This document shows positions 24,392 through 59,229 of a DNA stretch of 64,000 bases, in pieces. The notes beneath the pieces were generated by a model. That model did no database searches, was not told the DNA's origin, and saw nothing but the letters and a program-made list of their open reading frames with translations. Source of the DNA: Halorussus ruber (GTDB lineage Archaea > Halobacteriota > Halobacteria > Halobacteriales > Haladaptataceae); assembly GCF_004765785.1 (NCBI RefSeq), contig NZ_SBIT01000019.1, positions 1-64,000 of the forward strand, in the 5' to 3' direction. A program made the position numbers and the translations under genes. Position 1 is the first letter of the stretch. Every line of letters starts with the position of its first letter.

Positions 24392-24397
24392 AAGAAA

Positions 24398-25594: not shown

Positions 25595-26484
25595 CAAGCA
25601 TCACTCCTGTTCGAGGTCGTTTGGGCCGGGTCAGTCGGACCACCGTCGACAATAGACAACTCGCATGAGTTGTTTGTCCCGCCGTATTCGATTATCTGTG
25701 AGTACGACGGGTTCACCCCGGCTTGGACAACTCCGGTGACGGTGAGAGGGGCCGTCCCAAGTTCGTCACAGTTCACGTGCGCTCCCATGCCGAGACGCCC
25801 TTCTGTTTGGTAGATTGGCGCTGACGAGTAGACGACCGTTGCCTCACCAGCGGGAAGAAGAGCACCGTGACCGAACTCCATTGTCTCCTGAGACTTGACT
25901 CGACAGAGCGGGGCGTTCGACCACCGGGTCTTCGTAAGGAATGATGGTGCATTCCCTGTATTCTCGATAGTGAACGCAGCGTGTTGTTCCCATGTCGATC
26001 TATCCCTCTCCCAGGCCATATCCGGGTGATTCCGCGCCCACTTGAGGTCTGTAATCATGAGCTCGGGTTGGAGGGAAATCGTCGTCTCACCAATAGTCTC
26101 ATCACTAGCGACAGCGACCACGCGGTAGTCACCTGGCGTGTACCCATCTTCGGTCTCACCGAGTAGCTGAAACGATACCTGTGTCACTCCTTCCTGAACT
26201 TGCTGGAGCGCGTTCATGTCACCGGCAGGGTTGAGGAGGTTCACCGAATCTACCTCTGTATCGCTGGCGAGTTTGACAACGAGATCCGTCTCGACCATTC
26301 CGACGCGCTCAAAGACGTTGGTGTCACTTCCAGAGGCAGGAGATGTACTAGAACTTGTGCTGTTAGTCTCTGATGGCGATGATGAACAGCCAGCAAGCGT
26401 AATGATTGCTCCGCTAAGTCCAGTAAGAGCTGTTCGACGGTCGATACACCTACCGTGATTGGATGAAGTTGTGTTCTCGCTCAT
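25594..26484 (-). CDS. Tat lipoprotein of the transfer operon
   Basis: From the ATG at 26484 the product has 296 residues and starts with a twin-arginine/lipobox signal (CIDRRTALTGLSGAIITLAGC). A Ser/Thr-rich linker follows (SSSPSETNSTSSSTSPASGS), then a beta-rich domain with paired cysteines. It overlaps the upstream surface-protein gene by 4 bp, so it is part of the transfer operon and may be an outer-face component playing a VirB7-like stabilising role; that role is inferred from position only. An upstream in-frame extension beyond 26484 lies inside the neighbouring gene and is rejected. Confidence 0.75.
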   Translation of the reverse strand: MSENTTSSNHGRCIDRRTALTGLSGAIITLAGCSSSPSETNSTSSSTSPASGSDTNVFERVGMVETDLVVKLASDTEVDSVNLLNPAGDMNALQQVQEGVTQVSFQLLGETEDGYTPGDYRVVAVASDETIGETTISLQPELMITDLKWARNHPDMAWERDRSTWEQHAAFTIENTGNAPSFLTKTRWSNAPLCRVKSQETMEFGHGALLPAGEATVVYSSAPIYQTEGRLGMGAHVNCDELGTAPLTVTGVVQAGVNPSYSQIIEYGGTNNSCELSIVDGGPTDPAQTTSNRSDA

Positions 26485-28238
26485 GTTCTGTTTGAGAGTC
26501 CGAGCAATTCGCCACCAGACATGTAGTTGAAGCCGAAGAGCAGGACTGCTACAGGGAGGAACCAGAGTATCGTCACGACGACGAGTTGGATGATCGACTG
26601 AGCGTCCGGAAAGTCGGCAGGAAGCGTCGTAACGTCCGTCGATACGGCATACGGTTTCTCGGCCTGCCACCACGCTGTTGGAGTGTACTCCCCGCGAACA
26701 ACTGACCCAGAATCCGAGAGCGTCACAATACCTGTCCCACTACTGTTCAGCGCCGTCGTCTGATTCTCGATTGCCACACGGCCGGTTGTGACAGCGTCGC
26801 CGGTCGCGTTCTCCGTTACTTTCGCACGGACGACCGCATGGGTCGCATTGGCGTCGACGACTGTGAGGGTAAGATCCGTCTCGCGAACAGTCTGCTGCTT
26901 GGAGAGCGAGACCGTTCGTGATTGGCCTCGAACGATACCGTGAATCGTGACCTCGCGGAAGTCGCGCTCGTCCAAGGTTGTGGAACTTAGCGCGAGCGAG
27001 TCCGCGTTCACGTACGGATCAGCCGATTCAAGGTCGATGTTCGGCGGGAGCGACGGTCCTGTCTGTTCTGTCCCCCACGATTCCTCAATAGCAAGTGGGT
27101 GCGTGCCGTCGTCGGTTGGTTCAGTCGGAATGTACGGTGTCTGCTGGCTGGGGAACGCGTGAACCTGTACGGGACGTACTGACGATTCAGCACGCGACGT
27201 GTTAGTCGCAGTCCGCGTGACCATCGTCTGCCACCCGTCACTTCCTGCGGTGTAGAACCACCAATTGCTTCGCGCTTGAACCTCCTCGTCGACCGCGATT
27301 GTTGACCATTCCGTGTTCGGATGGACGACTGCGCCGGTTCGGTTCTCGTCGGTTTCAAACTGGACACGGTTCCCAGTGATACCGGAGAGTTGGTTGACAG
27401 AGACGTTCTGAGAGGTCGACACCGTTTTCGACGCTTCGAGGGTCTCAACGTTGCGCGTCCAGTCGACACTACAACCGGAACCCGTATCGTTCCACGTTGG
27501 GCACTCAAGCGTAACGTGACGGAGTTGCACCGTGATGGTAGCCGTGACAGTCAGCTGTGGCGACCCTGAGAGGTCGGTGTACTGGAGTGTCGCTTGATGG
27601 CCGCTCCCAGCATCAAGGGATTGGCCATCTGCGGTAAGCTCAACGGATTCGATTTGAGTCTGGTCGATTGACCAGCGGTCACGCTCCGATCCGTTTTGAT
27701 CACTTTGTGGAGTGGCCACCCGATAATCACTTATTGCGCGGACCTGACCCTCCGGGGAAACGTAGCGTGTCGTCTCGTTCCCCTGATGGAGGACTGTCGA
27801 CGGTTGGACAGCGAAGATACTGACGTATGCATCTTTGATGTACACACCATCCTCAAGCGATGCTCCCGCTGGGTGGACCGACGACCGCTCGCTTCCTGGA
27901 GTGTAGTCCCCGAAATCGCCGCGGTTCCAGTCATCGGCGGCCTGTGGTGGCTGGGCAAACGGAATGTCCGTCGACTGGGCAAGCCGCCGAGTGAACTCGC
28001 TGCGAGAAGCGACGTTCGAATCACCGAAATCGTCCGCGGACAGGTTACCTTTGTCTGTGTCTTCCGACCAGAGACGCTGGAACGTACTGTTGTTCACGCC
28101 GTAGTCGGGCCCATCGTCAGGGACTGGAGAGTCGCCATTAGATGGTGTCGCGGTATGTACGCTTCCTGCAATAACGATGGTGCTACTGCTCACGAGGAAC
28201 AGGGCAAGCACAGCGGTTATTGAGCGGCGGGCAGACAT
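26481..28238 (-). CDS. Secreted, C-terminally anchored surface protein of the transfer operon
   Basis: The protein has 585 residues. A Sec signal peptide occupies residues about 1-27 (MSARRSITAVLALFLVSSST then IVIAGSV). The long Asn/Thr-rich, beta-strand-rich extracellular part contains many NxT/S sites, and a single membrane segment lies at residues about 555-578 (IIQLVVVTILWFLPVAVLLF). The organisation is that of a surface adhesin or mating-pair factor held in the membrane. No catalytic motif is seen. It sits between the pilin-like gene and the lipoprotein gene. Confidence 0.72.
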   Translation of the reverse strand: MSARRSITAVLALFLVSSSTIVIAGSVHTATPSNGDSPVPDDGPDYGVNNSTFQRLWSEDTDKGNLSADDFGDSNVASRSEFTRRLAQSTDIPFAQPPQAADDWNRGDFGDYTPGSERSSVHPAGASLEDGVYIKDAYVSIFAVQPSTVLHQGNETTRYVSPEGQVRAISDYRVATPQSDQNGSERDRWSIDQTQIESVELTADGQSLDAGSGHQATLQYTDLSGSPQLTVTATITVQLRHVTLECPTWNDTGSGCSVDWTRNVETLEASKTVSTSQNVSVNQLSGITGNRVQFETDENRTGAVVHPNTEWSTIAVDEEVQARSNWWFYTAGSDGWQTMVTRTATNTSRAESSVRPVQVHAFPSQQTPYIPTEPTDDGTHPLAIEESWGTEQTGPSLPPNIDLESADPYVNADSLALSSTTLDERDFREVTIHGIVRGQSRTVSLSKQQTVRETDLTLTVVDANATHAVVRAKVTENATGDAVTTGRVAIENQTTALNSSGTGIVTLSDSGSVVRGEYTPTAWWQAEKPYAVSTDVTTLPADFPDAQSIIQLVVVTILWFLPVAVLLFGFNYMSGGELLGLSNRT

Positions 28239-33208: not shown

Positions 33209-34447
33209 ATGAGCGAGAACATCAGCTGGAGCCATCACGACCTCGACGGTCTCGAAGAACTGTACTGGGATGAAATCGCGCCCGCATTGCGCCGTGATGG
33301 ACGCGACCCGCATACTCGGCCATCCTACGAGACGCTCGCTGACCTCGGATATAGTGGTATCAGCTATACCCTTCGCGAACACCACGGCCTCACCGTCAAA
33401 GAGTTTCTCACCGACGTGGTCGACCTCGACGACCCCACCGTTTCCAGTAAATCACATGACGACTACGTCTGGCAGATATCGTCCACCGAGACCATCGACG
33501 AGCTCGAAGCCTACCTCCGCGCGCTCGACCGCCGTCGGAAGCTTGCCGACTCCACGCTCGCCTCGAAACGCACCCATCTAGCGACCTATGCGCAAATCTA
33601 CGAGGACCTCCACGGGACGTCGGACCTCCTCACACCGCTTTCTGATCCGTCAGAGCAGGCCACAGAGACGGAACGCGCCTACCAAGTCGTGGAGGTCCTC
33701 GACGACAAACTTGCAACCGACGGCACGAAATTTACGTACGTTGGGACGGTTCAGGGCTGGTACGACCGACTCGACCGGCACGGCGCGGCCGCCTATAATC
33801 CCTTGGACGGCGTGACAACCGACTTCGGCTGGGAGCGCACAGAACCCGACAATAAGGCACTTGCGCCGTCGGACGTCCGCGCGCTCAACAACGAGACCAA
33901 CACGCCTGCAGATCGCCTCCTACTCGTCGCACTCGCCGCGTGGGGGTTACGGTCGGGTGAGGTCGCGCGACTCCACGTCAGCCAGTTCGTTGGGGTCGAC
34001 TCCGACGACCCACACCTCGAGTTCGAGGAGCGGAAGAACGGCCCGAGCACGGTCAGCCTCCTCTACGGCTTGGACGCCTACCGGGAGCGCCAGCACGAAC
34101 TCGTCGACGACTACGACGAGTGGAATGGCTATCTCTTTCCTTCGACGCAGGCTGAGACCGGCCACATCGACTCGGATACCGTCCGAAATCGGTTCCACCG
34201 ACTCGCCAAACAGGCTAATGTCCGCGTCGACGGTGGTCTCCCGAAGCCCCACATGGCTCGTCGGTTCTGGTATAGCCAGTACCAGGACGCGCTTGCAGAC
34301 GTGCTCGACCGCCTCGATATCATCGCTGATGAGCAGGGGAGTTCATCCGCGGATGTAGTTCATCAGAACTATCTCTCCGAGGAGAAACGCCGGGAGGCTC
34401 GGCGACCTGCGATGCGGAAGTTGCTCGCAGACGCGTTCAGCAAGTAG
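33209..34447 (+). CDS. Tyrosine recombinase (integrase)
   Basis: The protein has 412 residues. Residues about 85-190 are a SAM-like core-binding domain. The catalytic domain carries the first arginine in AAWGLRSGEVARLH, the HxxR box in PHMARRFWYSQY and the nucleophilic tyrosine in VVHQNYLSEE near the C-terminus. These R-H-R-Y residues define tyrosine recombinases that integrate or resolve DNA. It stands immediately upstream of and co-oriented with the Mre11-HamB cluster, so it probably mobilised that cluster or its ancestor. No attachment-site duplication or tRNA is visible nearby. Confidence 0.88.
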   Translation: MSENISWSHHDLDGLEELYWDEIAPALRRDGRDPHTRPSYETLADLGYSGISYTLREHHGLTVKEFLTDVVDLDDPTVSSKSHDDYVWQISSTETIDELEAYLRALDRRRKLADSTLASKRTHLATYAQIYEDLHGTSDLLTPLSDPSEQATETERAYQVVEVLDDKLATDGTKFTYVGTVQGWYDRLDRHGAAAYNPLDGVTTDFGWERTEPDNKALAPSDVRALNNETNTPADRLLLVALAAWGLRSGEVARLHVSQFVGVDSDDPHLEFEERKNGPSTVSLLYGLDAYRERQHELVDDYDEWNGYLFPSTQAETGHIDSDTVRNRFHRLAKQANVRVDGGLPKPHMARRFWYSQYQDALADVLDRLDIIADEQGSSSADVVHQNYLSEEKRREARRPAMRKLLADAFSK

Positions 34448-34540: not shown

Positions 34541-35713
34541 ATGAAACAAACTCGGGTTCTTCATGTCAGCGACACTCATTTAGGATACAGACAGTACTGC
34601 TCTGACATCCGTCGGAACGACTTTTTTGATAACTTCGAGCAAACTATTGAGATAGCAGTTGACCGTGATGTAGACGCGGTTGTTCACACTGGAGACCTGT
34701 TTCACGGTTCTAATCCTTCTATTCAGAATATCGACAGATGTGCTGAAATCCTCGGACAACTTGACAGGGCCGGTATCCCAATGTATGGGATTGTTGGGAA
34801 CCACGAACGGAAGAACGACACACAACTCCTTGACTTGGTCGGGCGAATGGGTGACGTACGACGATTGAAGAAAGAACCAACACTCGTCGGTAATATCGCG
34901 CTCTACGGGATCGACGCAATCCCGGAGCGACGTTGGGAGGGAGCGTCCTTCGAATTGGCAGAACCACCGGCGGAGGCGACTACGACCGTACTGTGTCTTC
35001 ATCAATCTCTCGCGCCGCCGTTAGATGAAGAACACGCAAAACACGATCTCGAAGACGTGATTGACCGAGTCGGGATCGAGCTCGACGGAATCGCTTTGGG
35101 TGACATTCACCGGCCGAAGAGTGACCTGATCGGGGACACGGAGGTGTGGTACGCAGGGTCGACTGCCCGAACACAAAAGAACCAGACTCAGGCCGGTACC
35201 GTCCAACTGCTCAAGGTCAAGGACGGGGATTTATCTCGAAAGCAGATCGGACTCGACACCCGCTCGTTCTGCCCTATCACCGTTGAGTTCGGATCCGACG
35301 ACGGTGCTGGTCACTTGCGAGACAGACTCAGACAGGAATCGTTACAGGACGCGGTCGCCGCGCTGGAACTCACTGGTGAGCGCGGTGCGGTGACGGCGAA
35401 CGACGCTGTGACCGCGGCTCGTGAGGAAGGAGCGGCGGTGGTGACTGTCTCTGACGAACGCGGACGGGTCGATCTCGACTCCGGGAGTCTCGACGTGAGG
35501 GAAGTGGCGAGCCATGACGACGCCGTTGAGGAGCGTCTCAACGACGAGGAATTCCCATCTGTCGTCCACGAGGCGGACTCTCGAATCCGGACGGACGACG
35601 ACCTCCCGACTCGCACGGACCCCGCCGCAGATGAGTTTGAGTCAGACCTGAGAGAGGCGATGGCCTCCGAGTTCGACGACGAGGAGGCAGCGACGGTGGA
35701 GGTGGACGAATGA
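34541..35713 (+). CDS. mre11: Mre11-like nuclease
   Basis: The start MKQTRVLHVSDTHLG at 34541 gives 390 residues. All phosphodiesterase motifs of Mre11/SbcD are visible: DTHLG, HTGDLFHGS, GNHERKND, LHQSLAPP and ALGDIHRP. Mre11 is a Mn-dependent 3'-5' exonuclease and endonuclease that processes DNA ends with Rad50. The acidic C-terminal 100 residues (DLREAMASEFDDEEAAT near the end) probably carry the Rad50-binding region. It overlaps rad50 by 4 bp. This is an accessory copy, distinct from the usual chromosomal mre11 expected in haloarchaea. Confidence 0.9.
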   Translation: MKQTRVLHVSDTHLGYRQYCSDIRRNDFFDNFEQTIEIAVDRDVDAVVHTGDLFHGSNPSIQNIDRCAEILGQLDRAGIPMYGIVGNHERKNDTQLLDLVGRMGDVRRLKKEPTLVGNIALYGIDAIPERRWEGASFELAEPPAEATTTVLCLHQSLAPPLDEEHAKHDLEDVIDRVGIELDGIALGDIHRPKSDLIGDTEVWYAGSTARTQKNQTQAGTVQLLKVKDGDLSRKQIGLDTRSFCPITVEFGSDDGAGHLRDRLRQESLQDAVAALELTGERGAVTANDAVTAAREEGAAVVTVSDERGRVDLDSGSLDVREVASHDDAVEERLNDEEFPSVVHEADSRIRTDDDLPTRTDPAADEFESDLREAMASEFDDEEAATVEVDE

Positions 35714-38700
35714 GAGTCAAGCGCATTGAGGTCGAAAATCTCCAGAGCTACGACACGGAGACGGTGTCACTTCCCGAGGGAGTGATCTCAGTTCACGGCG
35801 AAAACGGGGCTGGGAAGACAACGCTTCTGCGTGCGATCTTCGGTGGGCTGTTTATGACGAACATGAAGAAGCTAGCAGAAATCAACATCCTTGACGACCT
35901 CATTCGTAGCGGACACGACAGTGCTGAGATTCGGCTCACCTTCGTCGCCGACGGCAAGCAGTATGAAACCACCTGGCAAATCGAACCGGGGAAGACCGCC
36001 GGAGCAACTCTCACCTCGCCGTCACTCGACAGTCCAGTTGAAGGATTCGAAGATGTCCAGAAGCACGTTGAGGAGATTGTCGGAATGGACGCCGAGACGT
36101 TCGTCCGATCCGTCTACGTCCAGCAAGGCGAGATCGACCGGTTGCTACGGGACGACGACCGGGAGGAACTGATTGACGACCTCCTAGAACTGGGCCAGTT
36201 CGACGAGTATCGAGCGCAGGCCAAGGGTGCGCGTCGAGCAGCCAGGAACCTCCGCGACGAAGCAGAGTCGAGAGCGAATACTCTCGATGAGCAGGTTGAG
36301 GACGGGTTCGAGTACGATACCGACGGCTATCGTGACGAGATCGGGGTAGTTGGAAGGAAGATCGATGACACGGAAGGTGAGAAAGAGGAGCAAGAGGAGA
36401 AGCTAGACAAACTCCATAACCTCCGAGAGAAAGCCAATGAGCAGATCGAACGTCATGGAGAACTTAAGTCGGAGATCGAGTCGAAGAAAGACGAACGCAA
36501 AGATCTCGTCGAGAAACGGGACGAGCAAGAGAAGGAGAAGTTGTCGGCCAAAGAGCAAATTACCGAGAATGAAGGTCGGATTGAGGAACTGCAGTCGGAG
36601 GTCACCGACCTATCGGAGACGGTGGCCGAGACGGAGACGCCAGTAACTACGGACGAGTTCAAGATTGACCTGAGTACCCGCGAGGACGCTGAAGCGTCAC
36701 TCGAACGCGCCCAAGATGGCGTTGAGTCGGCCAAGGTGACGATGAACGACCGGGAGAACAAACTGAAGACGGCGAAGAGCGACCGAGAGCGACTGGAGAG
36801 CAATCAGTCTGAACTTAAAGGAAGACGTGACGAGAAGAAGACGGAAATCTCCCAACTGGAGAGGGAAATCGAGGCGGCCAAGCGGAATGCTGGCCGTGCG
36901 AAGATACGTCTAGAGGACGCCGTCGAATCCCGCCGGGAGACAGTGATCGAGTTCCTGCCCGAGGAGCAACGTCCGGATGAGGTGTCCGACGATACCGAGA
37001 AAGTTGTAGCAGACGCACTTGAGGAATACAACAACCAAGTTCAAGAGTGTCATAAGAGGCGCGCTAGTGTCGAGACGGAGCTTGACAACGTCAAAGAAGA
37101 CCTCGAAGACGCACAGAAGTCGGTCAAGGACACCGAAGAGAGCATTGAGGAGATTGAGAGGGATGTGGAGACCCTCGAAGAAAAGATGTCAGATGCCGAG
37201 GACGAACACGACCGCCTCCGTAAGGAGTTCACAGAGCAGGTGGCAGAACTTGACGACCGACTGGCCGTATTCGACCTCGGAGTTAACACGGAAACCGTCG
37301 ACGAGGTGATCGACGACGACCTCCCGGCGAAGCGCGAAGAATTGCAGTCGCAACTCAGTGACGCCAAAGAACAGGTTACAGAACTCAAGACCAAACTGGA
37401 GAATCTCCGCGAGACGCGCTCGGAGCTGGATGGTCTCGATGGCGGTGCCGTCTGTCCGACGTGTCAGCAGGAGGTCAAGGCGAAGCATCTCGAGACGAAA
37501 CGCGAAGATGTCGAGAAGAAGATTCAAAAGCGAAATGAAGAACTAGAAGATGCCAAGCAGCGAGAAGCGGAACTGAGCGAAGAACTGACGACCTTGGAGG
37601 AAATCCGAGAGGACCTCCTCAACTTCCGGACGTTCCGCGACGACGATCTCGCCGAGGCCAAAGCACAAGTCGAGGAAATTCAGTCTGACCTCACGGATCG
37701 CCGTGAGGACCGCTCGAACGCTGAGGACGAACTGTCGGCGGCCGAGTCGGAGGAATCCGACGCCCAAGAGTTGGTAGAGAAACTGCGAGCGGAGCGAGCG
37801 GGGATCCAGTCCGAGATCGATGATATTGAGTCCCGCGTCTCGGCCGGAAAGGAGGCGCTAGAGACGTTCGAGACTGTCGAAGAGCGACGGGAGGCAGTTG
37901 ATGACGCCAAAGACCGGGTTGACGACCTCCAGTCGAAGCGGTCGGATCTCATTGACGAACGTGAGGAACTCACGGGAGAGATCGAAGAACTTGACGAGAA
38001 GATCGAGAGCCAGATGGAGGCAGTCACGGAGGCCGAAGACAAATTCGAGGAGGCGAAGGCGGCGGTCGATACTGCCGAGACGATCCGCGATTACATTGAC
38101 GACGCTGTCGACGCATACGACAAAATCGATGACCTCCAGCAGGAGATCAATAATCTTGAAAACGACATCGATAACGCCCAAGAACGAATAGACGAACTGG
38201 AAGAGAGAATCGATAAACTGGACGGAGAGGTCGAAGAGCGACAGGAGGAACGTGACAAGATCAACGTAGACGAGCTTGAGGAGAACCTGAAGAGATTAGA
38301 CGACGAGATCGATACTGTTGAGGGCGAGATTGGCGATTTGGAAGACGAAATTCAGAGTCTCCACGAACGCAAAACCACCTTGGAGAACGAACTTGAGCGA
38401 CTGGAAGATCTCCACGACAAGCGCGACACAGCTCAAGAGAAACGCGAGTGGGCACAGAGCCGCGCCGACGAATTTGAACGGCTTGCAGGTATCTATAGGG
38501 AGGTCAAGACGGAACTCCGGGATCAATACCTCGACTTCGTTGAGCAGTTTACGAACGACATCTTCAGGGAGGTGTACAAAAACGAGAGCTACCAGCAGGT
38601 AGAAATCGTAGCAGAGGACGAGTCGGAGACGGCCTACGCCATCACCCTCCACCGCTCCGATGGGGAGACCGTCGCACCTCACAACGCCAGCGGCGGAGAG

Positions 38701-39012
38701 CGCGCGGTGGTGAACCTCGCGCTCCGGGCTGGCGTGTACAAACTTATTGCCCAGCGACGAGGCGGCGACGCTGAGCGGCTGCCACCGTTGATTCTTGACG
38801 AACCGACGACGTACCTTGACGACGGTCACGTCGGCCGTCTCGACCAGATGTTGGACACAATTGCCGACTGGGGCGTCCCGCAGATTCTGGTCGTCTCACA
38901 CGACGACACGCTCGTCGACGGGGCCGAACACGAGTGCCGCGTCACTGTCGACGACGGGGCGAATGCATCGCGCGTCGATCTCCAGCGTGGCGCGGCTCTA
39001 GGTGACGACTGA
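35710..39012 (+). CDS. rad50: Rad50-like SMC ATPase
   Basis: The protein has 1100 residues. Walker A (GENGAGKTTLLRAIF) lies near residue 31, the Q-loop region VYVQQGEIDRLLRDD near residue 137, then some 450 residues of coiled coil, the zinc hook CPTCQQE near residue 581, a second coiled coil, the ABC signature NASGGERAVVNLALR near residue 994, Walker B LILDEPTTYLDD near residue 1028, and the H-loop LVVSHDD. Rad50 dimers tether DNA ends and gate Mre11. The stop overlaps the nurA start by one base (TGATG), so translation is coupled. Confidence 0.95.
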   Translation: MRVKRIEVENLQSYDTETVSLPEGVISVHGENGAGKTTLLRAIFGGLFMTNMKKLAEINILDDLIRSGHDSAEIRLTFVADGKQYETTWQIEPGKTAGATLTSPSLDSPVEGFEDVQKHVEEIVGMDAETFVRSVYVQQGEIDRLLRDDDREELIDDLLELGQFDEYRAQAKGARRAARNLRDEAESRANTLDEQVEDGFEYDTDGYRDEIGVVGRKIDDTEGEKEEQEEKLDKLHNLREKANEQIERHGELKSEIESKKDERKDLVEKRDEQEKEKLSAKEQITENEGRIEELQSEVTDLSETVAETETPVTTDEFKIDLSTREDAEASLERAQDGVESAKVTMNDRENKLKTAKSDRERLESNQSELKGRRDEKKTEISQLEREIEAAKRNAGRAKIRLEDAVESRRETVIEFLPEEQRPDEVSDDTEKVVADALEEYNNQVQECHKRRASVETELDNVKEDLEDAQKSVKDTEESIEEIERDVETLEEKMSDAEDEHDRLRKEFTEQVAELDDRLAVFDLGVNTETVDEVIDDDLPAKREELQSQLSDAKEQVTELKTKLENLRETRSELDGLDGGAVCPTCQQEVKAKHLETKREDVEKKIQKRNEELEDAKQREAELSEELTTLEEIREDLLNFRTFRDDDLAEAKAQVEEIQSDLTDRREDRSNAEDELSAAESEESDAQELVEKLRAERAGIQSEIDDIESRVSAGKEALETFETVEERREAVDDAKDRVDDLQSKRSDLIDEREELTGEIEELDEKIESQMEAVTEAEDKFEEAKAAVDTAETIRDYIDDAVDAYDKIDDLQQEINNLENDIDNAQERIDELEERIDKLDGEVEERQEERDKINVDELEENLKRLDDEIDTVEGEIGDLEDEIQSLHERKTTLENELERLEDLHDKRDTAQEKREWAQSRADEFERLAGIYREVKTELRDQYLDFVEQFTNDIFREVYKNESYQQVEIVAEDESETAYAITLHRSDGETVAPHNASGGERAVVNLALRAGVYKLIAQRRGGDAERLPPLILDEPTTYLDDGHVGRLDQMLDTIADWGVPQILVVSHDDTLVDGAEHECRVTVDDGANASRVDLQRGAALGDD

Positions 39013-40286
39013 TGGACGAGCGAACGCTGTCGGTCGTGAACGACCTCGTCGGGCGCGTCGACGAGGAGCTTACCCGGGACACAGACGACCAAACGGCGAA
39101 CGCACGGGAACTGTTCGAACTGCTGTCTCTAGACGGCGGATCCGTCGAACCGTTCGAGTCGGTGGAGTACCTCAAGACACCGACAGCCGAACTGGGGACA
39201 TGGGAGGACGACCCGTGGGGGGATCCGACGTACGGTGTCGACGCCAGCACAACACGACCGATGGAGTACGACAATGGACTCATCGTTGATGTCGCACACG
39301 CCAAACTTGGTGTGAACGGGGCGTCGGCCGACCGGAGCGTCGAGCGTCGCGGAACAGTGGTCACGGGATTGTACTCTGGTAGCCGAAATCTCACCGTTCC
39401 TTCCACGGAGACAAACGACACCGATATCATCGGCGAGGTAATTCAGGTCCCAGATAGTCGGGTCCAGCGGAACGTCACCTCGACGCTCACGTCTGCCGTC
39501 CAACGCCGAGCCGAGGCGCGACACGCGAAGCGGTGTCTCGACGCCGTTGACGGTCCCCTGTTCCTCGACGGCTCAGTGTACCCACTGGGCCTGCTCCCAC
39601 GTATCCCTGACTCTGATGGAGACGGCTCCCTCGATCCGGAGTGGGAGCTCCCGACGGAGGTTGTCCGGACCTACGTCGACATCGTGGACGACTGTTTCGA
39701 GCGTGACGTTCCGGTGTACGGCGTCGTGAAAACCTCCGAGATAGATACCCTGATAGAAGCGCTCCGGAGGAAGATCGAGCGCAACGAGGTTCGGACCGAC
39801 GACGGCCGCCGTCGGCGTGTTCCATACCGGACAGACGCACAGTTCATCGCCTCCGTACTCCGGAACGACAGCTTAGAGCATCTGGCGTACACGACGTGGT
39901 TCGTCGAGACCACCCCAAACTACCCGTCGGACCGCTCGGAACGACTTGACCCGCTGGCGGCACACCTTGATCATGGGACTCCGGCCGATTACCGGCGGGC
40001 GTTCTGTCACATCAGGCTACCCGAGACGGGCAACGTGTTCCGCATCGAGACGCCGTTGCTATTCCTTGAACGTGGGGCGGGTCCAGAGGCACTCCGGCTG
40101 AAAGCGCTCCGGGAAATTGCACGACGTTGCGACGTGCCAGGCGCAGTAGCGCGTGCAGACCGGATCGCCCGAATCAGTCCGAAGAACCGCAACCACATCA
40201 GAAACCGATTGGAGAAAGCAGAACCGTCGTACGACTATAATGACGGGCGGTGGGGTTACCTCCACAACAGAAAAGAAGGTGAGTGA
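39012..40286 (+). CDS. nurA: NurA-like nuclease
   Basis: The protein has 424 residues. NurA is a 5'-3' nuclease that works inside a HerA ring. The two acidic signatures of the RNase H-like NurA core are visible: YGVDASTTRPMEYDNG near residue 74 and PLFLDGSVYPLGL near residue 178. Later segments (YGVVKTSEIDTLIEAL, FCHIRLPETGNVFRIETPLL) match the usual NurA order. It is longer than thermophile NurA (about 340 residues), mainly at the N-terminus. It is preceded by rad50 and followed after one base by herA, the classical archaeal order of partners. Confidence 0.85.
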   Translation: MDERTLSVVNDLVGRVDEELTRDTDDQTANARELFELLSLDGGSVEPFESVEYLKTPTAELGTWEDDPWGDPTYGVDASTTRPMEYDNGLIVDVAHAKLGVNGASADRSVERRGTVVTGLYSGSRNLTVPSTETNDTDIIGEVIQVPDSRVQRNVTSTLTSAVQRRAEARHAKRCLDAVDGPLFLDGSVYPLGLLPRIPDSDGDGSLDPEWELPTEVVRTYVDIVDDCFERDVPVYGVVKTSEIDTLIEALRRKIERNEVRTDDGRRRRVPYRTDAQFIASVLRNDSLEHLAYTTWFVETTPNYPSDRSERLDPLAAHLDHGTPADYRRAFCHIRLPETGNVFRIETPLLFLERGAGPEALRLKALREIARRCDVPGAVARADRIARISPKNRNHIRNRLEKAEPSYDYNDGRWGYLHNRKEGE

Positions 40287-40287
40287 C

Positions 40288-42141
40288 ATGAGAGACAGTT
40301 TAACCGATCAAATCGACGAAATCATCGATGACGACGAGACCGACGACGCACAGAGCGAATCAGACGACCGTGACGAGTCGGGCTCGGTGACCGACGACGA
40401 AATCCCCGAACGACACGTTCCGAGTTCGATTGACTCCGACGATACCTTGGGCCACGTCCTAGCCAGTGAGGAGATCCACGTCAGTCGGACGGACCATCAG
40501 GTGAACGCCTTCGTCCGAACGAGCTGCAGAGATGAACTGCGTTTAGGAGACTACGTCCAAATTCCGTACCCGCCAGACGGCGACTCGGAACTGTTCGCCG
40601 TAACCGACCGACTCCGGTACGAACCGTACACAGAGTTCGACGATAAGACGGACGCACACAACCGTATCAGTTCACAGGCTGCACTCGACGAAGCAGAGTA
40701 CGTTCTCGTCGCCGAACTTGACCCGCTCTCTATCCTCGGCAAGTCCGAGGATGGGGAGTTCGAACAAAACGTCGTTGACAGGGTTCCGAAGCCGAACGCC
40801 CCGGTACAGTTGACCCGTGACGAGGACCGCCTCCGAACCGGTCTCGGTATCCCAAGCGATGGCGTCTTCGCCGGATGGCTCTCTGTCGGGGGTGACTGTG
40901 TCGAAGTGGATGGTCAATATGTGCCGTACTACCTCTCAAATCCCGGTGTTGACGACGACGGTGACGCGCCAGCGGTCTTCCGGCACACGCTGGTCGCCGG
41001 GTCAACTGGAAAGGGAAAAACACAGTTCACGAAGAACATTCTCCGTCAGTACGTCGACGGAACGCGATACCAAATCAAGGCTCATGACAGTGGGGTAACT
41101 AGCCAGAAACGTCTCAACGTTGTCCTATTTGACCCTGAAAACGAGTACGCACAAATGGCGGACGACAACGACCTGAGTGAGGAACTAACGGACCGACTCC
41201 TGAAACACGGTGTCGAGTACGGCGGCGTCGACGATCTGGAGGTGTTCGTCCCGCAGGTATCCGAGACACCCTCTCCACAGTATAAGGACTCAAGAGAGTC
41301 AAACGAGTTGACGATTCCGTTCGAGATCGTCCGTGGGCGACCGCAGCTTCTGATGCCTTTTGGAGGAAGTCCGGTGACCAGAGGCGCGCTAAAAGACTGT
41401 GTATCGTCGTACTTTGAGGAGTTCAACCAGGAGGACAACGGATGGGAGACGGATCGTTCGGTCAGCAGACCACGGTACGAAGATTTCGTCAACTATGTCG
41501 ACAGCGAGGAAGACGACCTCGCGGACACTCACGAAATCGGGTCGAACACGATGTCTGCGGTGAAGCGCCGAATCGGCCGACAGGAGTTCAATCACGTCTT
41601 CGATTGTGGGACTGGACTTCTTCCCGACATCTCGAACGAACTGTTCCGAGAGGGGCGTGTGTCGGTGATTCCGACGAGTCACCTCCGTGGGCGAAAAGAT
41701 ACGCTGACGGTCTTGTCGATCCTCTCCTATGTAATCGACAACAAAATCCGGGACTTCCGGGTCAATTCAGAGGTCCGCAACACGCCGATCCTGCTCGCCG
41801 TCGACGAGGCTCATAACTACTTCTCCTCGCCAGAGACGATTCAGGAGGAGTACGTTGTCGAGCGTGCTCGACGGACGGTGAAGCAAGGACGGAAATATCA
41901 ACTTGGCCTCTGTCTCGTGACACAGAACCCGCAGGACATTGACGACGAGATTCTGACTCAGATCAACACGAATGTTTTCCTTGGGATGAAATCGCGGGTA
42001 GTCGAAGAGGTTCCTTCAGTTCCGAAACAGTTCGCACAGGACCTCCCGACGTTCGACAGGGGCCAAGCAGTCGTGCAGGCCCCTGATGTCGAACCTGTCG
42101 AAGTGCAGGGGCTCTCGTTCTGTGTGACACGCCACAGTTAA
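40288..42141 (+). CDS. herA: HerA-like DNA translocase
   Basis: I start at the ATG at 40288 (617 residues), one base past the nurA stop. The first 55 residues are acidic and disordered. An N-terminal HAS-barrel-like region follows (HVSRTDHQVNAFVRTSC, LGDYVQIPYP). The motor has Walker A LVAGSTGKGKTQF near residue 237, Walker B ILLAVDEAHNYF near residue 505, and an arginine-finger region (RARRTVKQGRKYQLGLCLVT). HerA is a hexameric DNA pump that drives NurA. HerA proteins also occur as motors in several phage-defence systems, a relevant precedent here. Confidence 0.88.
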   Translation: MRDSLTDQIDEIIDDDETDDAQSESDDRDESGSVTDDEIPERHVPSSIDSDDTLGHVLASEEIHVSRTDHQVNAFVRTSCRDELRLGDYVQIPYPPDGDSELFAVTDRLRYEPYTEFDDKTDAHNRISSQAALDEAEYVLVAELDPLSILGKSEDGEFEQNVVDRVPKPNAPVQLTRDEDRLRTGLGIPSDGVFAGWLSVGGDCVEVDGQYVPYYLSNPGVDDDGDAPAVFRHTLVAGSTGKGKTQFTKNILRQYVDGTRYQIKAHDSGVTSQKRLNVVLFDPENEYAQMADDNDLSEELTDRLLKHGVEYGGVDDLEVFVPQVSETPSPQYKDSRESNELTIPFEIVRGRPQLLMPFGGSPVTRGALKDCVSSYFEEFNQEDNGWETDRSVSRPRYEDFVNYVDSEEDDLADTHEIGSNTMSAVKRRIGRQEFNHVFDCGTGLLPDISNELFREGRVSVIPTSHLRGRKDTLTVLSILSYVIDNKIRDFRVNSEVRNTPILLAVDEAHNYFSSPETIQEEYVVERARRTVKQGRKYQLGLCLVTQNPQDIDDEILTQINTNVFLGMKSRVVEEVPSVPKQFAQDLPTFDRGQAVVQAPDVEPVEVQGLSFCVTRHS

Positions 42142-42157
42142 TCCCCTCTCCATGTTG

Positions 42158-42164
42158 TTTTAAG
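42158..42164 (+). promoter_or_regulatory. Possible separate promoter for hamA
   Basis: In the 48-bp gap between herA and hamA the sequence TTTTAAG lies about 29 nt before the hamA ATG, a normal TATA position. It suggests that the Hachiman pair can also be transcribed alone. Confidence 0.45.
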
Positions 42165-42189
42165 TGATAGCGTTTCAACTATCCGAGTA

Positions 42190-43158
42190 ATGACTGCGAC
42201 GCAGTCGGAACGCACGAACTGGGGGGAGCTAACGGAGGTGGAGGAAGAGACCATAGAGGAAGTAGTCTTCTCGATGGATGGGGATTCGACGGACCGAGTA
42301 GATGTCGAAATCAAATGTATCAAACCCGGCCCGAATGGGTGGAAGTTCCACCAGTTCGTCGAAACACTACACGATTATTTCCACACGTACGTCCTTCCTC
42401 CGAGCGTCCGTGCCGACACCCCAGAGTTCCGGTGGCATCGGAAGGCGCGTAAGAAGGCTGCGCCGAATGAGAACTTTGAGAGTGGTGGTGTTGTCTCTGA
42501 GTTCCTGCTGTACCTGTTCACTGAGGCGTACCTTGACGCGCCACTCGCCGCCCACAGACTCTACGAACTGGACAGTCGAAATCAGGAGAAAAAAGGGTCA
42601 GACGGTCTCTTCGTCGGGAGACACCGCGGTGAAGAGTGTCTCTACGTCGGCGAAGCGAAGTTCTACGACAGTATCGCCTCCGCGATTGAGGACGCGTTCG
42701 ACAGTATCTCCGAGTTCCACACACGGGGTGTCAACGACCGGATGGAGCGCGAACTCGAACTAGCCAGTACCGACTTCGCCGAGAAGACGGACTCACTGTC
42801 GACTGATGAGGTCGAGGCGCTCGCGAACCGGCTCTCGCCACGTGCTCATGAAGACTACAAGATCGTCCATCCGTTATTCCTCGGTCACGAGACGGCTCGA
42901 CTCGACTGGTACCCGAATCCCGGTCCAGATGTACTCGAATTCGGAGACGACAGTCCACCAAGAGAGCAACAGATAGAGGACGAACTCAAAGAGAACCTTC
43001 GGGAGATTCCGTACCTGAAGCGGCGGGAGGAGAAGGCTTCAGAACTCGGACCGGCTCGGGGAACCGTTGAGATGGTGTTCTTCCCATTCCCAGTTCACGA
43101 CACCACCGAGTTCAAGCGGCTACTCTACGAAGGCCTGTTCAATCCAGAAAATGCCTAG
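42190..43158 (+). CDS. hamA: HamA-like nuclease (DUF1837) of a Hachiman system
   Basis: The protein has 322 residues. The central DUF1837 core is clear: SEFLLYLFTEAYLDAPLAAH, then KGSDGLFVGR, ECLYVGEAKFYDSI and AIEDAFDSISEFH. The D...ExK pattern (SDG and GEAK near residue 155) is the restriction-fold active site of HamA, the nuclease that degrades DNA when freed by HamB. It is somewhat longer than typical HamA, mainly at the N-terminus and in a charged insert (residues about 180-215). It overlaps hamB by 8 bp, the expected pair arrangement. Anti-virus activity is established for bacterial Hachiman and inferred here. Confidence 0.85.
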   Translation: MTATQSERTNWGELTEVEEETIEEVVFSMDGDSTDRVDVEIKCIKPGPNGWKFHQFVETLHDYFHTYVLPPSVRADTPEFRWHRKARKKAAPNENFESGGVVSEFLLYLFTEAYLDAPLAAHRLYELDSRNQEKKGSDGLFVGRHRGEECLYVGEAKFYDSIASAIEDAFDSISEFHTRGVNDRMERELELASTDFAEKTDSLSTDEVEALANRLSPRAHEDYKIVHPLFLGHETARLDWYPNPGPDVLEFGDDSPPREQQIEDELKENLREIPYLKRREEKASELGPARGTVEMVFFPFPVHDTTEFKRLLYEGLFNPENA

Positions 43159-45760
43159 CGACGGCCCCACCACCTACGAGTCAGCTGCGAACAGCGACCT
43201 GTTCCGGAACTGTCTCGAACAGCTTGCAGTAGAGCGGTTGTTCACCGATCTCGGTCTGGACAGGAACGTGACCGTTGACGACTCACGACTCCGTCGTGCA
43301 GCCTGGATCGCCTCGTTGCTGGCGAACAGTGACGACGAAACCCATCGCCAGCTGGCGGTGTCATTCGCCATTCTCGCATACCACCATGCCGATAGCGAGC
43401 GTAACGAAGAGCTCTACCGCAACTACCTCTTCACTGTGATGAGCCGTCTCGGAAACGTTCCAGTCGTGCAGTCGTACTTCGGAGACGGTTCTGAGACGGC
43501 TGTTGCATCGGGCCCGTCCGGACCGAACGACCCCGAAGATGGAATTCCAGAAACACTGAAGTACGAACTTGAAGGTACAGAGGCACACTACTCTGTCGGG
43601 ACTAACAACACGGCTACCGGCGGAGTAGACGACCTCGTCTTGACGCGGTTCCAGAAGGATGTCTGGGACGAGTTGGTGACTGGACGCGATACGGCCTTCT
43701 CCGGACCGACTTCCTCGGGGAAGTCGTTCCTCGTCCGGAAGTATATCGAGTACCTAGCCACGACGTGTACTGAGTTCTGCGGCCTCTACCTCGTTCCGTC
43801 TAGAGCACTAATCGCAGAGGTCAGTGCGGAGTTGGGTGGCGACCTCCCGGACTCCGTTCAGGTGCGGACAGAGGTGGTCAATCCTAGTGAACTAGACGAG
43901 ACTGCCGTGTACGTGCTGACACCTGAACGCACGCTCAGCTTACTGGAGTCAGCAGATGATGTCGATCTTGACTTTTGCTTTATGGATGAGATCCAGAGCG
44001 TTGAGAAATCGCAGCGGGGACCATTATTCGAGTTCGTCTTGGACTCGATTATCAACGTGTGGCCCGATGCACAGGTAGTCGGTGCGGGCCCGTTCGTCGA
44101 AAACGTTGCGTCGCCCATCGAGAATGCAAAGACGTACCTCGATGATGAACCCTCAGAGGATTCGGATGTTGAGGAGGTTGTGACAACGTACTCGCCGGTG
44201 TATCGTCTCCAGTCGGAGTTTACCTTTGAGCCTCGCTCGAACGAACTCAGACTAACCGTCGGTGATCAAACGAGCTTCGAGACTGAAAAGCAGATCGAGC
44301 GTCCAAACGACGTGAAGTTTTCGACAGTGAAGGGGAATAAGAGTGAGACGGTCAGGGCTTTCGCCGAACTGTACAGAATGGGGGACCCACTTCTCGTGTA
44401 TGCCGAGACGGTTACCCGAGCGGAGAATCTCGCTGAACGGATTGCTGGCGACCGGGAAAAAGACACTACTCGGTTTCCCGAACTCGTTTCATTCCTCCGT
44501 GAGGAATTGACAGAGTCATACCCGCTCATCAAGTGTCTCCAGGCCGGAGTGGCGTACCATCACGGTGGTGTCCCACCATTTGCACGCTCCGAAATTGAGT
44601 CGCTCTACCGAAACGGCGAAATTGATACAATCGTCTCAACGACGACCCTTCTCGAGGGAGTGAACCTCCCAGCGGGGAAGATTTTGGTCGTAGATCACAC
44701 GGTTGGTGGTGAAAAAGGAGAAGAACTCTCACAGTTCCAGCTACAGAATCTCGTAGGCCGTGTTGGTCGGGTCGGTGAACGTCTCCACGGCGAAGTATTG
44801 TACGTCGATCATAAGGATGACCGCTGGGCAAATGATCAGATTAGTGGAATTGCCCGCAAGCAAATCAAGCCCACAACCACTGAAATCCTCGGTACGAGGA
44901 CGGAGGCAGTAGTCAATCTTCTTAACTTTCCGCTTCACCGGGTTGCGCCTGGGTCAAAGAGATCAACCGCAGTGTTCCTGAAATCACGGTATCTCATCGA
45001 TTCGGACCAGACAGAGCGATTCGTACTCTGGAGGCTGAAACAAAGCGAAGAGTCCGATGTCGAAGAGTATTTCAAAAGGATCCGGAGTGGGCTTCAGGAG
45101 CTCCAAGAACGAATAGACGTACCAGTAACAGTCGTTGAGCAAAACCCGGCCGTCGATCCAGACATTGCAAACAATTTGTACACCGAAGTCTGTGCCGACC
45201 CGTCGGGGTGGGTCGTTCATCCTGAGCGTATTGCCAAGGATCTCTCCGATCTCGTCGAACGTCTTGACGAGGTGGCTGCGCTCGTCCCTGAGGGTCGTTG
45301 GGAAGACCAGGCCAAGACAAAATGGATATCCGATACTTCTACGCTCGCTGACCTCGCTACTGGGTGGCTCCAGGAGAAAGACTACAAAACCCTCGTGACA
45401 ATTAGTGGATTGGACGACATCTCGAAACTACTCAGAGCACTCCGACAGGACGTCAGGTACGTGCTCTCGAAGTATTTCAAAGTGGTCGGCGACATACTTG
45501 CGCACGTCGACACCGGCGGTGTGGCTTCCGAAGCTGTTGAGTTCACGAAACGGCTGAATCTTTATTTCGAACACGGTACCTCATCGGAGGCGACATTACA
45601 GTTGATGAATCTCGGACTCTCTCGATCTGTTGCGCTCCGTCTCTCACTACCTATTGAGTTGCCTACGAGAAGCCGAATTGAACGCTATCTTGCCGACTCA
45701 GATGAACCGTTAAACCCATTTGTTGAGCAGCGAATTAATCGGCATGGCATCGGCGAGTAA
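43151..45760 (+). CDS. hamB: HamB-like helicase of a Hachiman system
   Basis: From the ATG at 43151 (MPSDGPTTYESA) the product has 869 residues. Superfamily 2 motifs appear in order: Q-like TRFQKDVWDELV, Walker A SGPTSSGKSFL near residue 185, LVPSRALIAEVS (Ia), DFCFMDEIQSVE (motif II, DEIQ) near residue 279, AYHHGGVPPFAR, TTTLLEGVNLPAGK (motif V) and LQNLVGRVGRVG (motif VI). HamB surveys DNA and restrains HamA. The roughly 140-residue N-terminal domain and the helical C-terminal 250 residues fit known HamB proteins in size. An IS6 remnant starts 11 bp after its stop. Confidence 0.87.
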   Translation: MPSDGPTTYESAANSDLFRNCLEQLAVERLFTDLGLDRNVTVDDSRLRRAAWIASLLANSDDETHRQLAVSFAILAYHHADSERNEELYRNYLFTVMSRLGNVPVVQSYFGDGSETAVASGPSGPNDPEDGIPETLKYELEGTEAHYSVGTNNTATGGVDDLVLTRFQKDVWDELVTGRDTAFSGPTSSGKSFLVRKYIEYLATTCTEFCGLYLVPSRALIAEVSAELGGDLPDSVQVRTEVVNPSELDETAVYVLTPERTLSLLESADDVDLDFCFMDEIQSVEKSQRGPLFEFVLDSIINVWPDAQVVGAGPFVENVASPIENAKTYLDDEPSEDSDVEEVVTTYSPVYRLQSEFTFEPRSNELRLTVGDQTSFETEKQIERPNDVKFSTVKGNKSETVRAFAELYRMGDPLLVYAETVTRAENLAERIAGDREKDTTRFPELVSFLREELTESYPLIKCLQAGVAYHHGGVPPFARSEIESLYRNGEIDTIVSTTTLLEGVNLPAGKILVVDHTVGGEKGEELSQFQLQNLVGRVGRVGERLHGEVLYVDHKDDRWANDQISGIARKQIKPTTTEILGTRTEAVVNLLNFPLHRVAPGSKRSTAVFLKSRYLIDSDQTERFVLWRLKQSEESDVEEYFKRIRSGLQELQERIDVPVTVVEQNPAVDPDIANNLYTEVCADPSGWVVHPERIAKDLSDLVERLDEVAALVPEGRWEDQAKTKWISDTSTLADLATGWLQEKDYKTLVTISGLDDISKLLRALRQDVRYVLSKYFKVVGDILAHVDTGGVASEAVEFTKRLNLYFEHGTSSEATLQLMNLGLSRSVALRLSLPIELPTRSRIERYLADSDEPLNPFVEQRINRHGIGE

Positions 45761-45954: not shown

Positions 45955-47390
45955 CTGTCCCGTTTCAAGTACTTAAATCCGCTGTGCGCTCGTTAGATCG
46001 GGCTGATGGGAACACAAATCAAACGACCGATTGACTGTTCATCCCCATTAACCGTCGGGGCTGAATTTTACTCGCTGCTCGACGTAGTCGACAGCGAGTC
46101 TATTGCCGATGATTTCGAAATCGGCACTCACACCGCCAAACACGACTTTGCCAACCATCTCAAAGTCGCCATCTTCGAGGGTGTCCACCCCTCCGATTCG
46201 CTTGCTGAGCTCGCTGAGAAAACAGATACCCATGATGAGTTAGAGTACATGGCTGGCTCGACCTTCTCTCGGTTGACGAACGACCGCGACTACCGCGCGG
46301 TCGTTCGTCTCTTCTTTGAGCTACTCCACTCACCCCAGCTCTACCACCAACGTGGTGTCCAACGCAAACAGCTCGACTGGCTTGATCGAACTGTTGTGGC
46401 GACTGATTCCACGAATCTCACCGTGACTCGGTCGGTCGCAATCCCTAGCGAAAGCCGTGACACCGAGATTTTGCACGTGATACAGCCAGGTGAGAAAGGC
46501 CTTCATCTCAATCTTGCCGCACGCGTTGACGGCAATGCCAAGCATCCGCTTGGCGTGACGATTACGCCAGGCGTGATGCGGGAACCGACCCAGTTCGACC
46601 ATCTCCAAAGCGACGTCGAGGTCTTTGCAGACCTCGACTCGCCAATTCACGTGTTCGATCGGGGCTACCTCGATTACGAGCGGTTCTGCTCACTTAACGA
46701 GCAGGACAAGGACTTCATTTGTCCGCTTCAGACGGACGCAAGGGTCGACGTCCTGGAGCACGTCCAGGACGTCGAGATTACCGACGAACAAGGGACACGA
46801 CACCTCCGCGATGAACGAATCGAACTCGCTGAGACCAACGAAGAATTTCGCCGCATCGTCTTCGAGGATGTCGACGGCGAAGAACTCGCGTATCTGACGA
46901 CGTTGTCGTCAGGATACGCTCCTGTGGAGGTGATGAGCATCTACACGCTGCGAACCATGATCGAGATCCTCTTCCGCGAACTGAAACAGTACACGAACAT
47001 TGAGAATTTCCACTCACAATCGCTGAACGGAGTCCTATTCGAGATCTTCTGTACGTTAATCGGGTATGTGCTCGTCGAGTGGTTCCGGCAGCGCCACCCG
47101 CTGCGGGGTGGCGTGCCGGAAGCGATTCGAGCGATCCGTACGCGGTGGAACACGTCGCTGCGAACCTACGGCTGAATTCGTCTCACGGCGACTGGAGCGC
47201 CGCCGCTGGAGCGGCGGCACTCCTCTGTCTGTCCGTTTCCCGTCCAAATCTGGAGAATGACCCGAGATGGACGCTTTCTCTCCGGGCAGTTCTTTCTGAG
47301 AACGTTGTGCTGCTTGAGCACGCGTACAGTCGTCGACTGAATCTGTTGAGTCGCTTGCTCGGTGACTTTATCACCTCGAAACGGGACAGT
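45955..47390 (+). mobile_element. IS4-family (ISH8-like) insertion sequence, 1436 bp
   Basis: The ends are inverted repeats: CTGTCCCGTTTC at 45955-45966 and its complement at 47379-47390, extending imperfectly. The element is flanked by an 8-bp direct repeat TTTTCGAT (45947-45954 and 47391-47398), a target duplication inside the IS6 transposase remnant. It encodes one transposase (46006-47175). The 215 bp after that gene contain a GC hairpin but no gene. It appears intact. Confidence 0.88.
46006..47175 (+). CDS. IS4-family transposase
   Basis: The protein has 389 residues and is full length for the ISH8-type group. The DDE residues can be placed: the first D in VVATDSTNLTV near residue 131, the second in HVFDRGYLDYERF near residue 218, and E in TLRTMIEILFRELKQY near residue 330, which also contains the Y-R-E-K signature of IS4 transposases. 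It lies inside terminal repeats with a target duplication, so it is probably active or recently so. Confidence 0.92.
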   Translation: MGTQIKRPIDCSSPLTVGAEFYSLLDVVDSESIADDFEIGTHTAKHDFANHLKVAIFEGVHPSDSLAELAEKTDTHDELEYMAGSTFSRLTNDRDYRAVVRLFFELLHSPQLYHQRGVQRKQLDWLDRTVVATDSTNLTVTRSVAIPSESRDTEILHVIQPGEKGLHLNLAARVDGNAKHPLGVTITPGVMREPTQFDHLQSDVEVFADLDSPIHVFDRGYLDYERFCSLNEQDKDFICPLQTDARVDVLEHVQDVEITDEQGTRHLRDERIELAETNEEFRRIVFEDVDGEELAYLTTLSSGYAPVEVMSIYTLRTMIEILFRELKQYTNIENFHSQSLNGVLFEIFCTLIGYVLVEWFRQRHPLRGGVPEAIRAIRTRWNTSLRTYG

Positions 47391-54226: not shown

Positions 54227-54316
54227 ATGCACAACGCAAACAAGAAACAACAGACGCAGTCGACCCAAGAACCGCTTCTAATTGCTGGAAAGAATAGCAT
54301 CGGTGGAGACTCATGA
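54227..54316 (+). CDS. Possible 29-residue protein coupled to the exonuclease gene
   Basis: An ATG at 54227 opens a 29-codon frame (MHNANKKQQTQSTQEPLL...) whose TGA overlaps the next start as ATGA. It fills nearly the whole gap between two genes. The 4-bp overlap is the same arrangement as in many real pairs here. It is Gln/Lys-rich, unlike shadow frames, but too short to identify. Confidence 0.4.
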   Translation: MHNANKKQQTQSTQEPLLIAGKNSIGGDS

Positions 54317-55749: not shown

Positions 55750-55752
55750 TCC

Positions 55753-59147: not shown

Positions 59148-59191
59148 AATTTCAGTAAATCGTGTTCACGGCGACTGCGTCGGAGTAGGAC

Positions 59192-59219
59192 GCGCCGCAC
59201 CCCTCAGGGCGCAAAAAAC
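59192..59219 (-). promoter_or_regulatory. T-tract plus hairpin leader, copy 6 (ardC)
   Basis: The minus strand shows T6, then a GCGCC/GGCGC stem with loop CTGAGGGGTGC, 45 nt before the ardC ATG. It begins 11 bp beyond the stop of the DUF6610 gene. Confidence 0.65.
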
Positions 59220-59229
59220 ACTCGTGGCG

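What the first reader, a model, noticed from the sequence alone, without database searches (positions are those of the whole stretch)
34541..45760. Six-gene Mre11-Rad50-NurA-HerA-HamA-HamB cluster: candidate composite defence system
An accessory copy of the whole archaeal end-resection set (Mre11, Rad50, NurA, HerA) is encoded in tight coupling (overlaps of 4 and 1 bp, then a 1-bp gap), followed after 48 bp by HamA and HamB of a Hachiman system (8-bp overlap). All key motifs look intact. Hachiman pairs and HerA motors are established in phage defence, and HamAB is reported to respond to damaged or aberrant DNA. Joining them to a DNA-end processor suggests a system in which Mre11/Rad50/NurA/HerA generate or remove the DNA structures that HamB senses, or add a second layer of DNA degradation. 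I know of no described six-gene system of this kind.
Basis: partly seen in the sequence, partly recalled or inferred. Interest (0 to 1): 0.92.

Follow-up and report, generated by a model that had tools for sequence, protein, structure and literature searches.

The report
Mobile DNA-end-processing cassette with Hachiman pair
A plasmid-like contig of a salt-loving archaeon carries a spare copy of the whole archaeal DNA-end-processing set joined to a known anti-virus enzyme pair (Hachiman); the four processing genes prove to be a widespread mobile cassette that sits beside different DNA-destroying defence enzymes in different species, which hints at a modular immune machine still to be tested.

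Summary
The six genes are real, intact and at the stated coordinates. The core is a four-gene accessory cassette, mre11-rad50-nurA-herA (MRNH): about 45 of 391 haloarchaeal genomes carry it, mostly beside the chromosomal mre11-rad50 and nurA-herA pairs, which lie apart and form separate clades. Its four genes co-evolve (distance correlations 0.94-0.98) under purifying selection. hamAB follows herA in only two loci, this window and one metagenome bin. There all six genes have diverged in parallel (54-75% identity, dS 1.1-1.9) with order and spacing kept, and this HamA type was found nowhere else. Other cassettes have other DNA-attacking partners: an OLD nuclease behind herA (7 loci), a PLD protein, or Argonaute within 15 kb (10 loci; 7 of 48 sampled Argonautes, about 0.05 expected). 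In a few genomes the cassette supplies the only clear Mre11, so a repair role is not excluded. Best reading: a mobile RecBCD-like DNA-end degrader paired with exchangeable nucleases that act when end processing fails or ends persist. Hachiman is one module, not an obligatory part. No such family was found in the papers searched.

The parts
34541..35713 (+). mre11 (accessory): metallophosphoesterase nuclease, motifs intact
   Evidence: accessory clade
35710..39012 (+). rad50 (accessory): Walker A GENGAGKT, zinc hook CPTC, signature SGGE, Walker B LILDEP
39012..40286 (+). nurA (accessory): NurA nuclease
   Evidence: model matches NurA structures
40288..42141 (+). herA (accessory): DUF87/HerA translocase, Walker A and B intact
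42142..42189 (+). 48-bp herA-hamA gap; TTTTAAGTGAT element about 29 nt before hamA, nearly identical in the second six-gene locus: possible TATA-type promoter of hamAB (inference)
42190..43158 (+). hamA: Hachiman effector nuclease, D138...GE155xK157 intact
43151..45760 (+). hamB: Hachiman SF2 Ski2-like sensor helicase
33209..34447 (+). tyrosine integrase directly upstream; possible mobility gene of the island, not shown to belong
46006..47175 (+). IS4-family transposase directly downstream (boundary of the cluster)

Best explanation
The cluster is a mobile DNA-end-processing cassette (MRNH) with a Hachiman module added behind it. Proposed mechanism: Mre11-Rad50 binds and opens DNA ends, including blocked ones, and HerA-NurA then threads and degrades the duplex. 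This gives a RecBCD-like first layer against linear incoming or replicating foreign DNA. HamAB is the second layer. It scans DNA, and where a 3' end or single strand persists because the invader protects its ends or inhibits MRNH, HamB loads, HamA is released and DNA, the host's included, is destroyed. In other cassettes OLD nuclease, PLD protein or Argonaute would fill the second-layer slot. Shown here: accessory nature, intact motifs, co-inheritance of the six genes, recurrence of the four-gene core, alternative nuclease neighbours. Inferred: antiviral role, division of labour, and that HamAB responds to failed rather than normal end processing.
For: Patchy four-gene unit in about 45 of 391 genomes, separate from the chromosomal copies. 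Mirror-tree r 0.94-0.98 on 43 loci. dN/dS 0.04-0.24 in all pairs and genes compared. Six genes of window and L032 in parallel divergence, dS 1.1-1.9 and dN/dS 0.13-0.23, same order, gap 48 vs 47 bp. The cassette-linked HamA lineage is 71% identical within, about 30% at most to other haloarchaeal HamAs found. OLD nuclease behind herA in 7 loci; MRNH-PLD-pAgo in one run in L167; pAgo within 15 kb in 10 loci, 6 changes on the tree; 7 of 48 sampled pAgos against 0.05 expected; BREX and McrBC-like genes nearby. Literature: HamB needs a 3' DNA end (PMC12278908); T. kodakarensis HerA-NurA degrades both strands and is suggested to be antiviral (PMC12977600); OLD and Gabija act when RecBCD is inhibited or absent from DNA (PMC12904381, PMC10568477, PMC12407980).
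Against: Only two six-gene loci, one of them an 11.9-kb contig of a metagenome bin whose host assignment is uncertain. Many cassettes have no conserved partner right behind herA. In G250, G324, G044, G021 and G361 the cassette supplies the only clear Mre11, and in G250 and G324 it sits beside the proteasome-ATPase gene that normally flanks chromosomal mre11-rad50, which suits a repair role. Closeness to defence genes can be plain defence-island clustering. A possible separate hamAB promoter weakens the operon argument. No experiment was possible.
Confidence: 0.45

Rival explanations
1. Mobile spare repair set. MRNH is an alternative double-strand-break repair module carried by plasmids and sometimes replacing the chromosomal copy; hamAB and the other defence genes are neighbours in an accessory region.
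For: Sole clear Mre11 in G250, G324, G044, G021, G361, with four relatives in the same genus lacking a clear Mre11 and NurA; cassette beside the proteasome-ATPase gene in that genus; a Halocatena cassette lies among metabolic genes.
Against: Most carriers keep the chromosomal sets; repeated placement beside OLD and Argonaute genes; six-gene co-inheritance at high synonymous divergence.
Confidence: 0.27
2. Feeding model. MRNH resects ends and makes the 3' overhangs or fragments that activate HamAB, as RecBCD products supply guides to some Argonautes.
For: HamB requires a 3' end (PMC12278908); RecBCD processing contributes small DNAs to pAgos (PMC10269773), and pAgo is a recurrent neighbour.
Against: T. 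kodakarensis HerA-NurA does not make 3' overhangs but cuts both strands (PMC12977600); hamAB occurs without MRNH beside it in the other haloarchaeal loci read.
Confidence: 0.15
3. Coincidence of an accessory region: two independent modules that happen to be adjacent and were inherited together in one small lineage.
For: Two loci only, one lineage (1 change on the tree); possible own promoter for hamAB.
Against: Order and spacing kept while synonymous sites changed heavily; analogous nuclease partners in the same slot in other clades.
Confidence: 0.13

Closest known systems
Hachiman (HamAB)
   Same: HamA PF08878 with D-GEXK motif, HamB Ski2-like helicase, overlapping hamA-hamB order
   Different: Attached behind an accessory Mre11-Rad50-NurA-HerA set; HamA lineage distinct, with an insert at about residues 239-249
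Archaeal Mre11-Rad50 / HerA-NurA operon of hyperthermophiles
   Same: Same four proteins in one tight cluster, motifs intact
   Different: Patchy extra copy in haloarchaea; the usual order recalled from memory is herA-mre11-rad50-nurA, here mre11-rad50-nurA-herA; linked to defence nucleases
HerA-based defence (HerA-SIR2, HerA-DUF4297)
   Same: HerA motor beside a nuclease
   Different: Partner here is NurA; no SIR2 or DUF4297; full Mre11-Rad50 present
OLD / Gabija with RecBCD as the watched enzyme
   Same: End-directed nuclease linked to a DNA-end-processing machine; OLD is found behind herA in 7 other cassettes
   Different: Here the processor is encoded next to the nuclease; in this window the partner is HamAB, not OLD
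Haloarchaeal pAgo-AgaP (APAP, PMC11442185)
   Same: PLD-like protein and pAgo lie beside or behind several cassettes
   Different: Not in this window; coupling to MRNH not found in the papers searched

Membership tests
Hachiman | HamA (DUF1837) nuclease with D-GEXK motif | tested here: met
   PF08878 1e-28; D138, E155, K157 invariant; model's top hits are E. coli HamA 8zue_A, 8vx9_A
Hachiman | HamB SF2 Ski2-like helicase | tested here: met
   PADLOC HamB1 1.7e-177; matches solved HamB 8vx9_B 1e-12
Hachiman | HamAB complex protects against phage, senses DNA ends or damage | not testable with these tools
   needs experiment
Archaeal Mre11-Rad50-HerA-NurA set | Catalytic and ATPase motifs of all four proteins | tested here: met
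Archaeal Mre11-Rad50-HerA-NurA set | Orthology to the host's housekeeping copies | tested here: not met
   separate clades, about 30-36% identity to own chromosomal copies
HerA-SIR2 / HerA-DUF4297 | SIR2 or DUF4297 partner next to HerA | tested here: not met
   no such family among the six genes and their neighbours
Lamassu | LmuA effector with LmuB SMC protein | tested here: not met
   Rad50 scores on LmuB models through its SMC-like parts, but no LmuA in the cluster and Rad50 models score far higher
Gabija | GajA (OLD-type) with GajB helicase | tested here: not met
   no GajA or GajB among the listed PADLOC matches of the six genes (for Rad50 and HamB only the best 25 are listed)

The most novel reading that the evidence does not exclude
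Haloarchaea carry an undescribed family of modular immune systems: a mobile DNA-end-processing core (Mre11-Rad50-NurA-HerA) encoded beside an exchangeable nuclease (Hachiman, OLD, or PLD/Argonaute) that is licensed by the state of the core, so that the watched repair enzyme and its guard travel as one unit.
Probability: 0.35. Interest if true: 0.85.

Novelty: new variant of a known kind. Interest (0 to 1): 0.68.

Why it matters
Whether archaeal HerA-NurA serves repair or antiviral DNA destruction is disputed (PMC12977600). A mobile, complete extra set linked to defence nucleases offers a copy that can probably be deleted and tested. It also bears on how Hachiman and OLD tell self from foreign DNA: in bacteria several such nucleases respond to the state of RecBCD, and here a functional analogue of RecBCD would be encoded next to the nuclease.

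Tried and rejected
1) IetA as a cargo type: PADLOC called c9 IetA, but the same protein (about 80% identical) flanks chromosomal mre11-rad50 and has a proteasomal-ATPase domain, so it is the proteasome-activating ATPase, a chromosomal landmark, not cargo. 2) Lamassu and PbeC-type hits of Rad50: rejected as SMC-like coiled-coil and ATPase similarity. 3) Viral origin: no relative of the cassette NurA or of this HamA in viral contigs. 4) Wider spread: in a 295-genome phylum sample the cassette NurA was seen only in haloarchaea. 6) L106, first labelled chromosomal, groups with accessory Mre11; it is probably another accessory copy of that bin. 7) The AgaP motif HxK-GSxN was found by a crude regular expression in only one PLD protein (L167), so identity with AgaP is not claimed for the others.

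Full report
OBSERVATION. mre11, rad50, nurA and herA are coupled with overlaps of 4 and 1 bp and a gap of 1 bp if herA starts at ATG 40288. hamA follows after 48 bp and hamB overlaps hamA by 8 bp. Catalytic motifs are present in Mre11 and HerA, Rad50 and HamA (D138, GE155xK157). Structure models from family alignments find NurA structures and E. coli HamA as top matches, although the HamA model is of moderate confidence (mean pLDDT 67). The window is nearly all of a 64.8-kb contig with orc1/cdc6, parA and TraG/VirD4-like ATPase genes, so it is probably a plasmid or part of one (inference).

THE SET IS ACCESSORY. The same genome has chromosomal nurA-herA on contig C1 and mre11-rad50 on contig C5, far from each other and only about 30-36% identical to the cassette proteins. 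In the NurA tree all 52 cassette sequences form one side of a fully supported branch and all 19 chromosomal ones the other. Mre11 splits the same way, except L106, which seems to be a further accessory copy.

A FOUR-GENE CASSETTE FAMILY. A search of 391 haloarchaeal genomes, followed by neighbourhoods of up to 20 kb, shows mre11-rad50-nurA-herA in this order in about 45 genomes (my count), mostly with the same tight junctions. Some copies are truncated by contig ends, incomplete or interrupted. Named carriers include Natrinema, Halorubrum, Natribaculum, Halosimplex, Haloferax, Halocatena and Halorhabdus, several of them on plasmids. Distance matrices of the four proteins correlate at 0.94-0.98 over 43 loci, and no permutation reaches this. 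dN/dS is 0.04-0.24. One pair of cassettes with identical NurA and Mre11 sits in different host families (L070 and L172), which indicates recent transfer. The family was seen only in haloarchaea in a 295-genome phylum sample and not in viral contigs.

HAMAB IN THIS FAMILY. HamA is rare: 14 of 391 genomes. Only the window and L032/L116, a contig of the metagenome bin ERR2683608_bin.7, have it behind herA. In the other loci read, hamAB stands without the cassette genes. Between window and L032 protein identities are 64 (Mre11), 54 (Rad50), 68 (NurA), 75 (HerA), 71 (HamA) and 66% (HamB). Synonymous divergence is similar and high in all six genes (dS 1.1-1.9) with dN/dS 0.13-0.23. The two cassettes are sisters in both trees. 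The HamA lineage is not found elsewhere in 170 genomes of the second host's family or 28 of the window's family. So the six genes appear to have been joined once and inherited together for a long time. The sister clade of 12 cassettes has no hamAB. The herA-hamA gap carries a conserved TTAAGTGAT element about 29 nt before the start codon in both loci, which fits a haloarchaeal TATA-type promoter close to a leaderless start; this is inference.

OTHER PARTNERS. In one clade an OLD-type nuclease lies behind herA in the same direction in 7 loci, at 273-326 bp in five of them and about 1.7 kb on in the other two. In another clade a PLD-like protein follows after 23-45 bp (L065, L166, L167), and in L167 an Argonaute follows that. 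Argonaute genes lie within 15 kb of 10 cassettes, needing 6 changes on the NurA tree. In the 391-genome sample, 7 of 48 Piwi genes do so, against about 0.05 expected for random placement. That expectation uses nominal numbers (45 cassettes, 30 kb each, 3.6-Mb genomes) and ignores the general clustering of defence genes, so it shows association with defence regions, not function. BREX-type and McrBC-like genes also occur nearby. One clade (Halorubrum, Natrinema) has no conserved gene behind herA.

A COUNTERWEIGHT. In G250, G324, G044, G021 and G361 the cassette supplies the only clear Mre11. In G250 and G324 it lies beside the proteasome-activating ATPase gene, the usual neighbour of chromosomal mre11-rad50. 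Four genomes of the same genus have no clear Mre11 and no NurA match. The cassette can therefore stand as the sole set, so a repair function is possible and the defence reading is not proven.

MECHANISM. [quoted passage not shown] HerA-NurA of Thermococcus kodakarensis degrades both strands, does not make 3' overhangs, and is suggested to be antiviral; [quoted passage not shown] OLD, Gabija and a retron act when RecBCD is inhibited or missing from DNA, and P2 Old kills recBC mutants (PMC12904381, PMC10568477, PMC12407980). RecBCD processing contributes to the guide DNAs of some Argonautes (PMC10269773). The partners of MRNH are thus the kinds of enzyme that respond to the state of DNA ends. 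I therefore favour a two-layer system: MRNH destroys accessible ends, and the partner nuclease acts where ends persist. The alternative, that MRNH feeds HamAB with ends, makes the opposite prediction for an MRNH deletion. Genome comparison cannot decide between them.

NOVELTY. The components are known. Nine searches of the open paper library found no description of an accessory mre11-rad50-nurA-herA cassette, its link to Hachiman, OLD or Argonaute, or the six-gene arrangement; subscription papers and most preprints are not in that library. I rate it a new variant of a known kind.

Noticed in passing
window 54313-58191: RNase_H_2 protein followed by a DEAD helicase with MrfA zinc-binding domain: resembles the MrfB-MrfA exonuclease-helicase pair of mitomycin repair. 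A related pair (42/63% identity) follows herA in the Natribaculum breve plasmid (L041).
   Followed up: partly
L041:9134-11460: The Natribaculum breve herA is split by an insertion with two ORFs on the opposite strand.
   Followed up: no
window 16956-28238: Block of minus-strand genes with two TraG/VirD4-like ATPases (1069 and 1092 aa) and several proteins without Pfam match: possible conjugation-type apparatus.
   Followed up: no
window 15330-16601: Protein with NrS-1 polymerase HBD domain, a primase-polymerase-type gene usual in mobile elements.
   Followed up: no
window 58197-60231: ArdC-N/IrrE-like protein (weak match) and a DUF6610 protein side by side.
   Followed up: no
genus g26 (G073, G157, G236, G253): Genomes at least 94% complete without a NurA match and with only weak Mre11 matches; related genomes of the same genus carry the cassette instead.
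   Followed up: partly
L167:8492-14719: MRNH followed directly by a PLD-like protein and an Argonaute on the same strand: another apparent six-gene run.
   Followed up: partly
L035, L036, L037, L042 upstream of mre11: Divergent metallo-beta-lactamase-fold protein of about 800 aa conserved upstream of Halorubrum cassettes.
   Followed up: no
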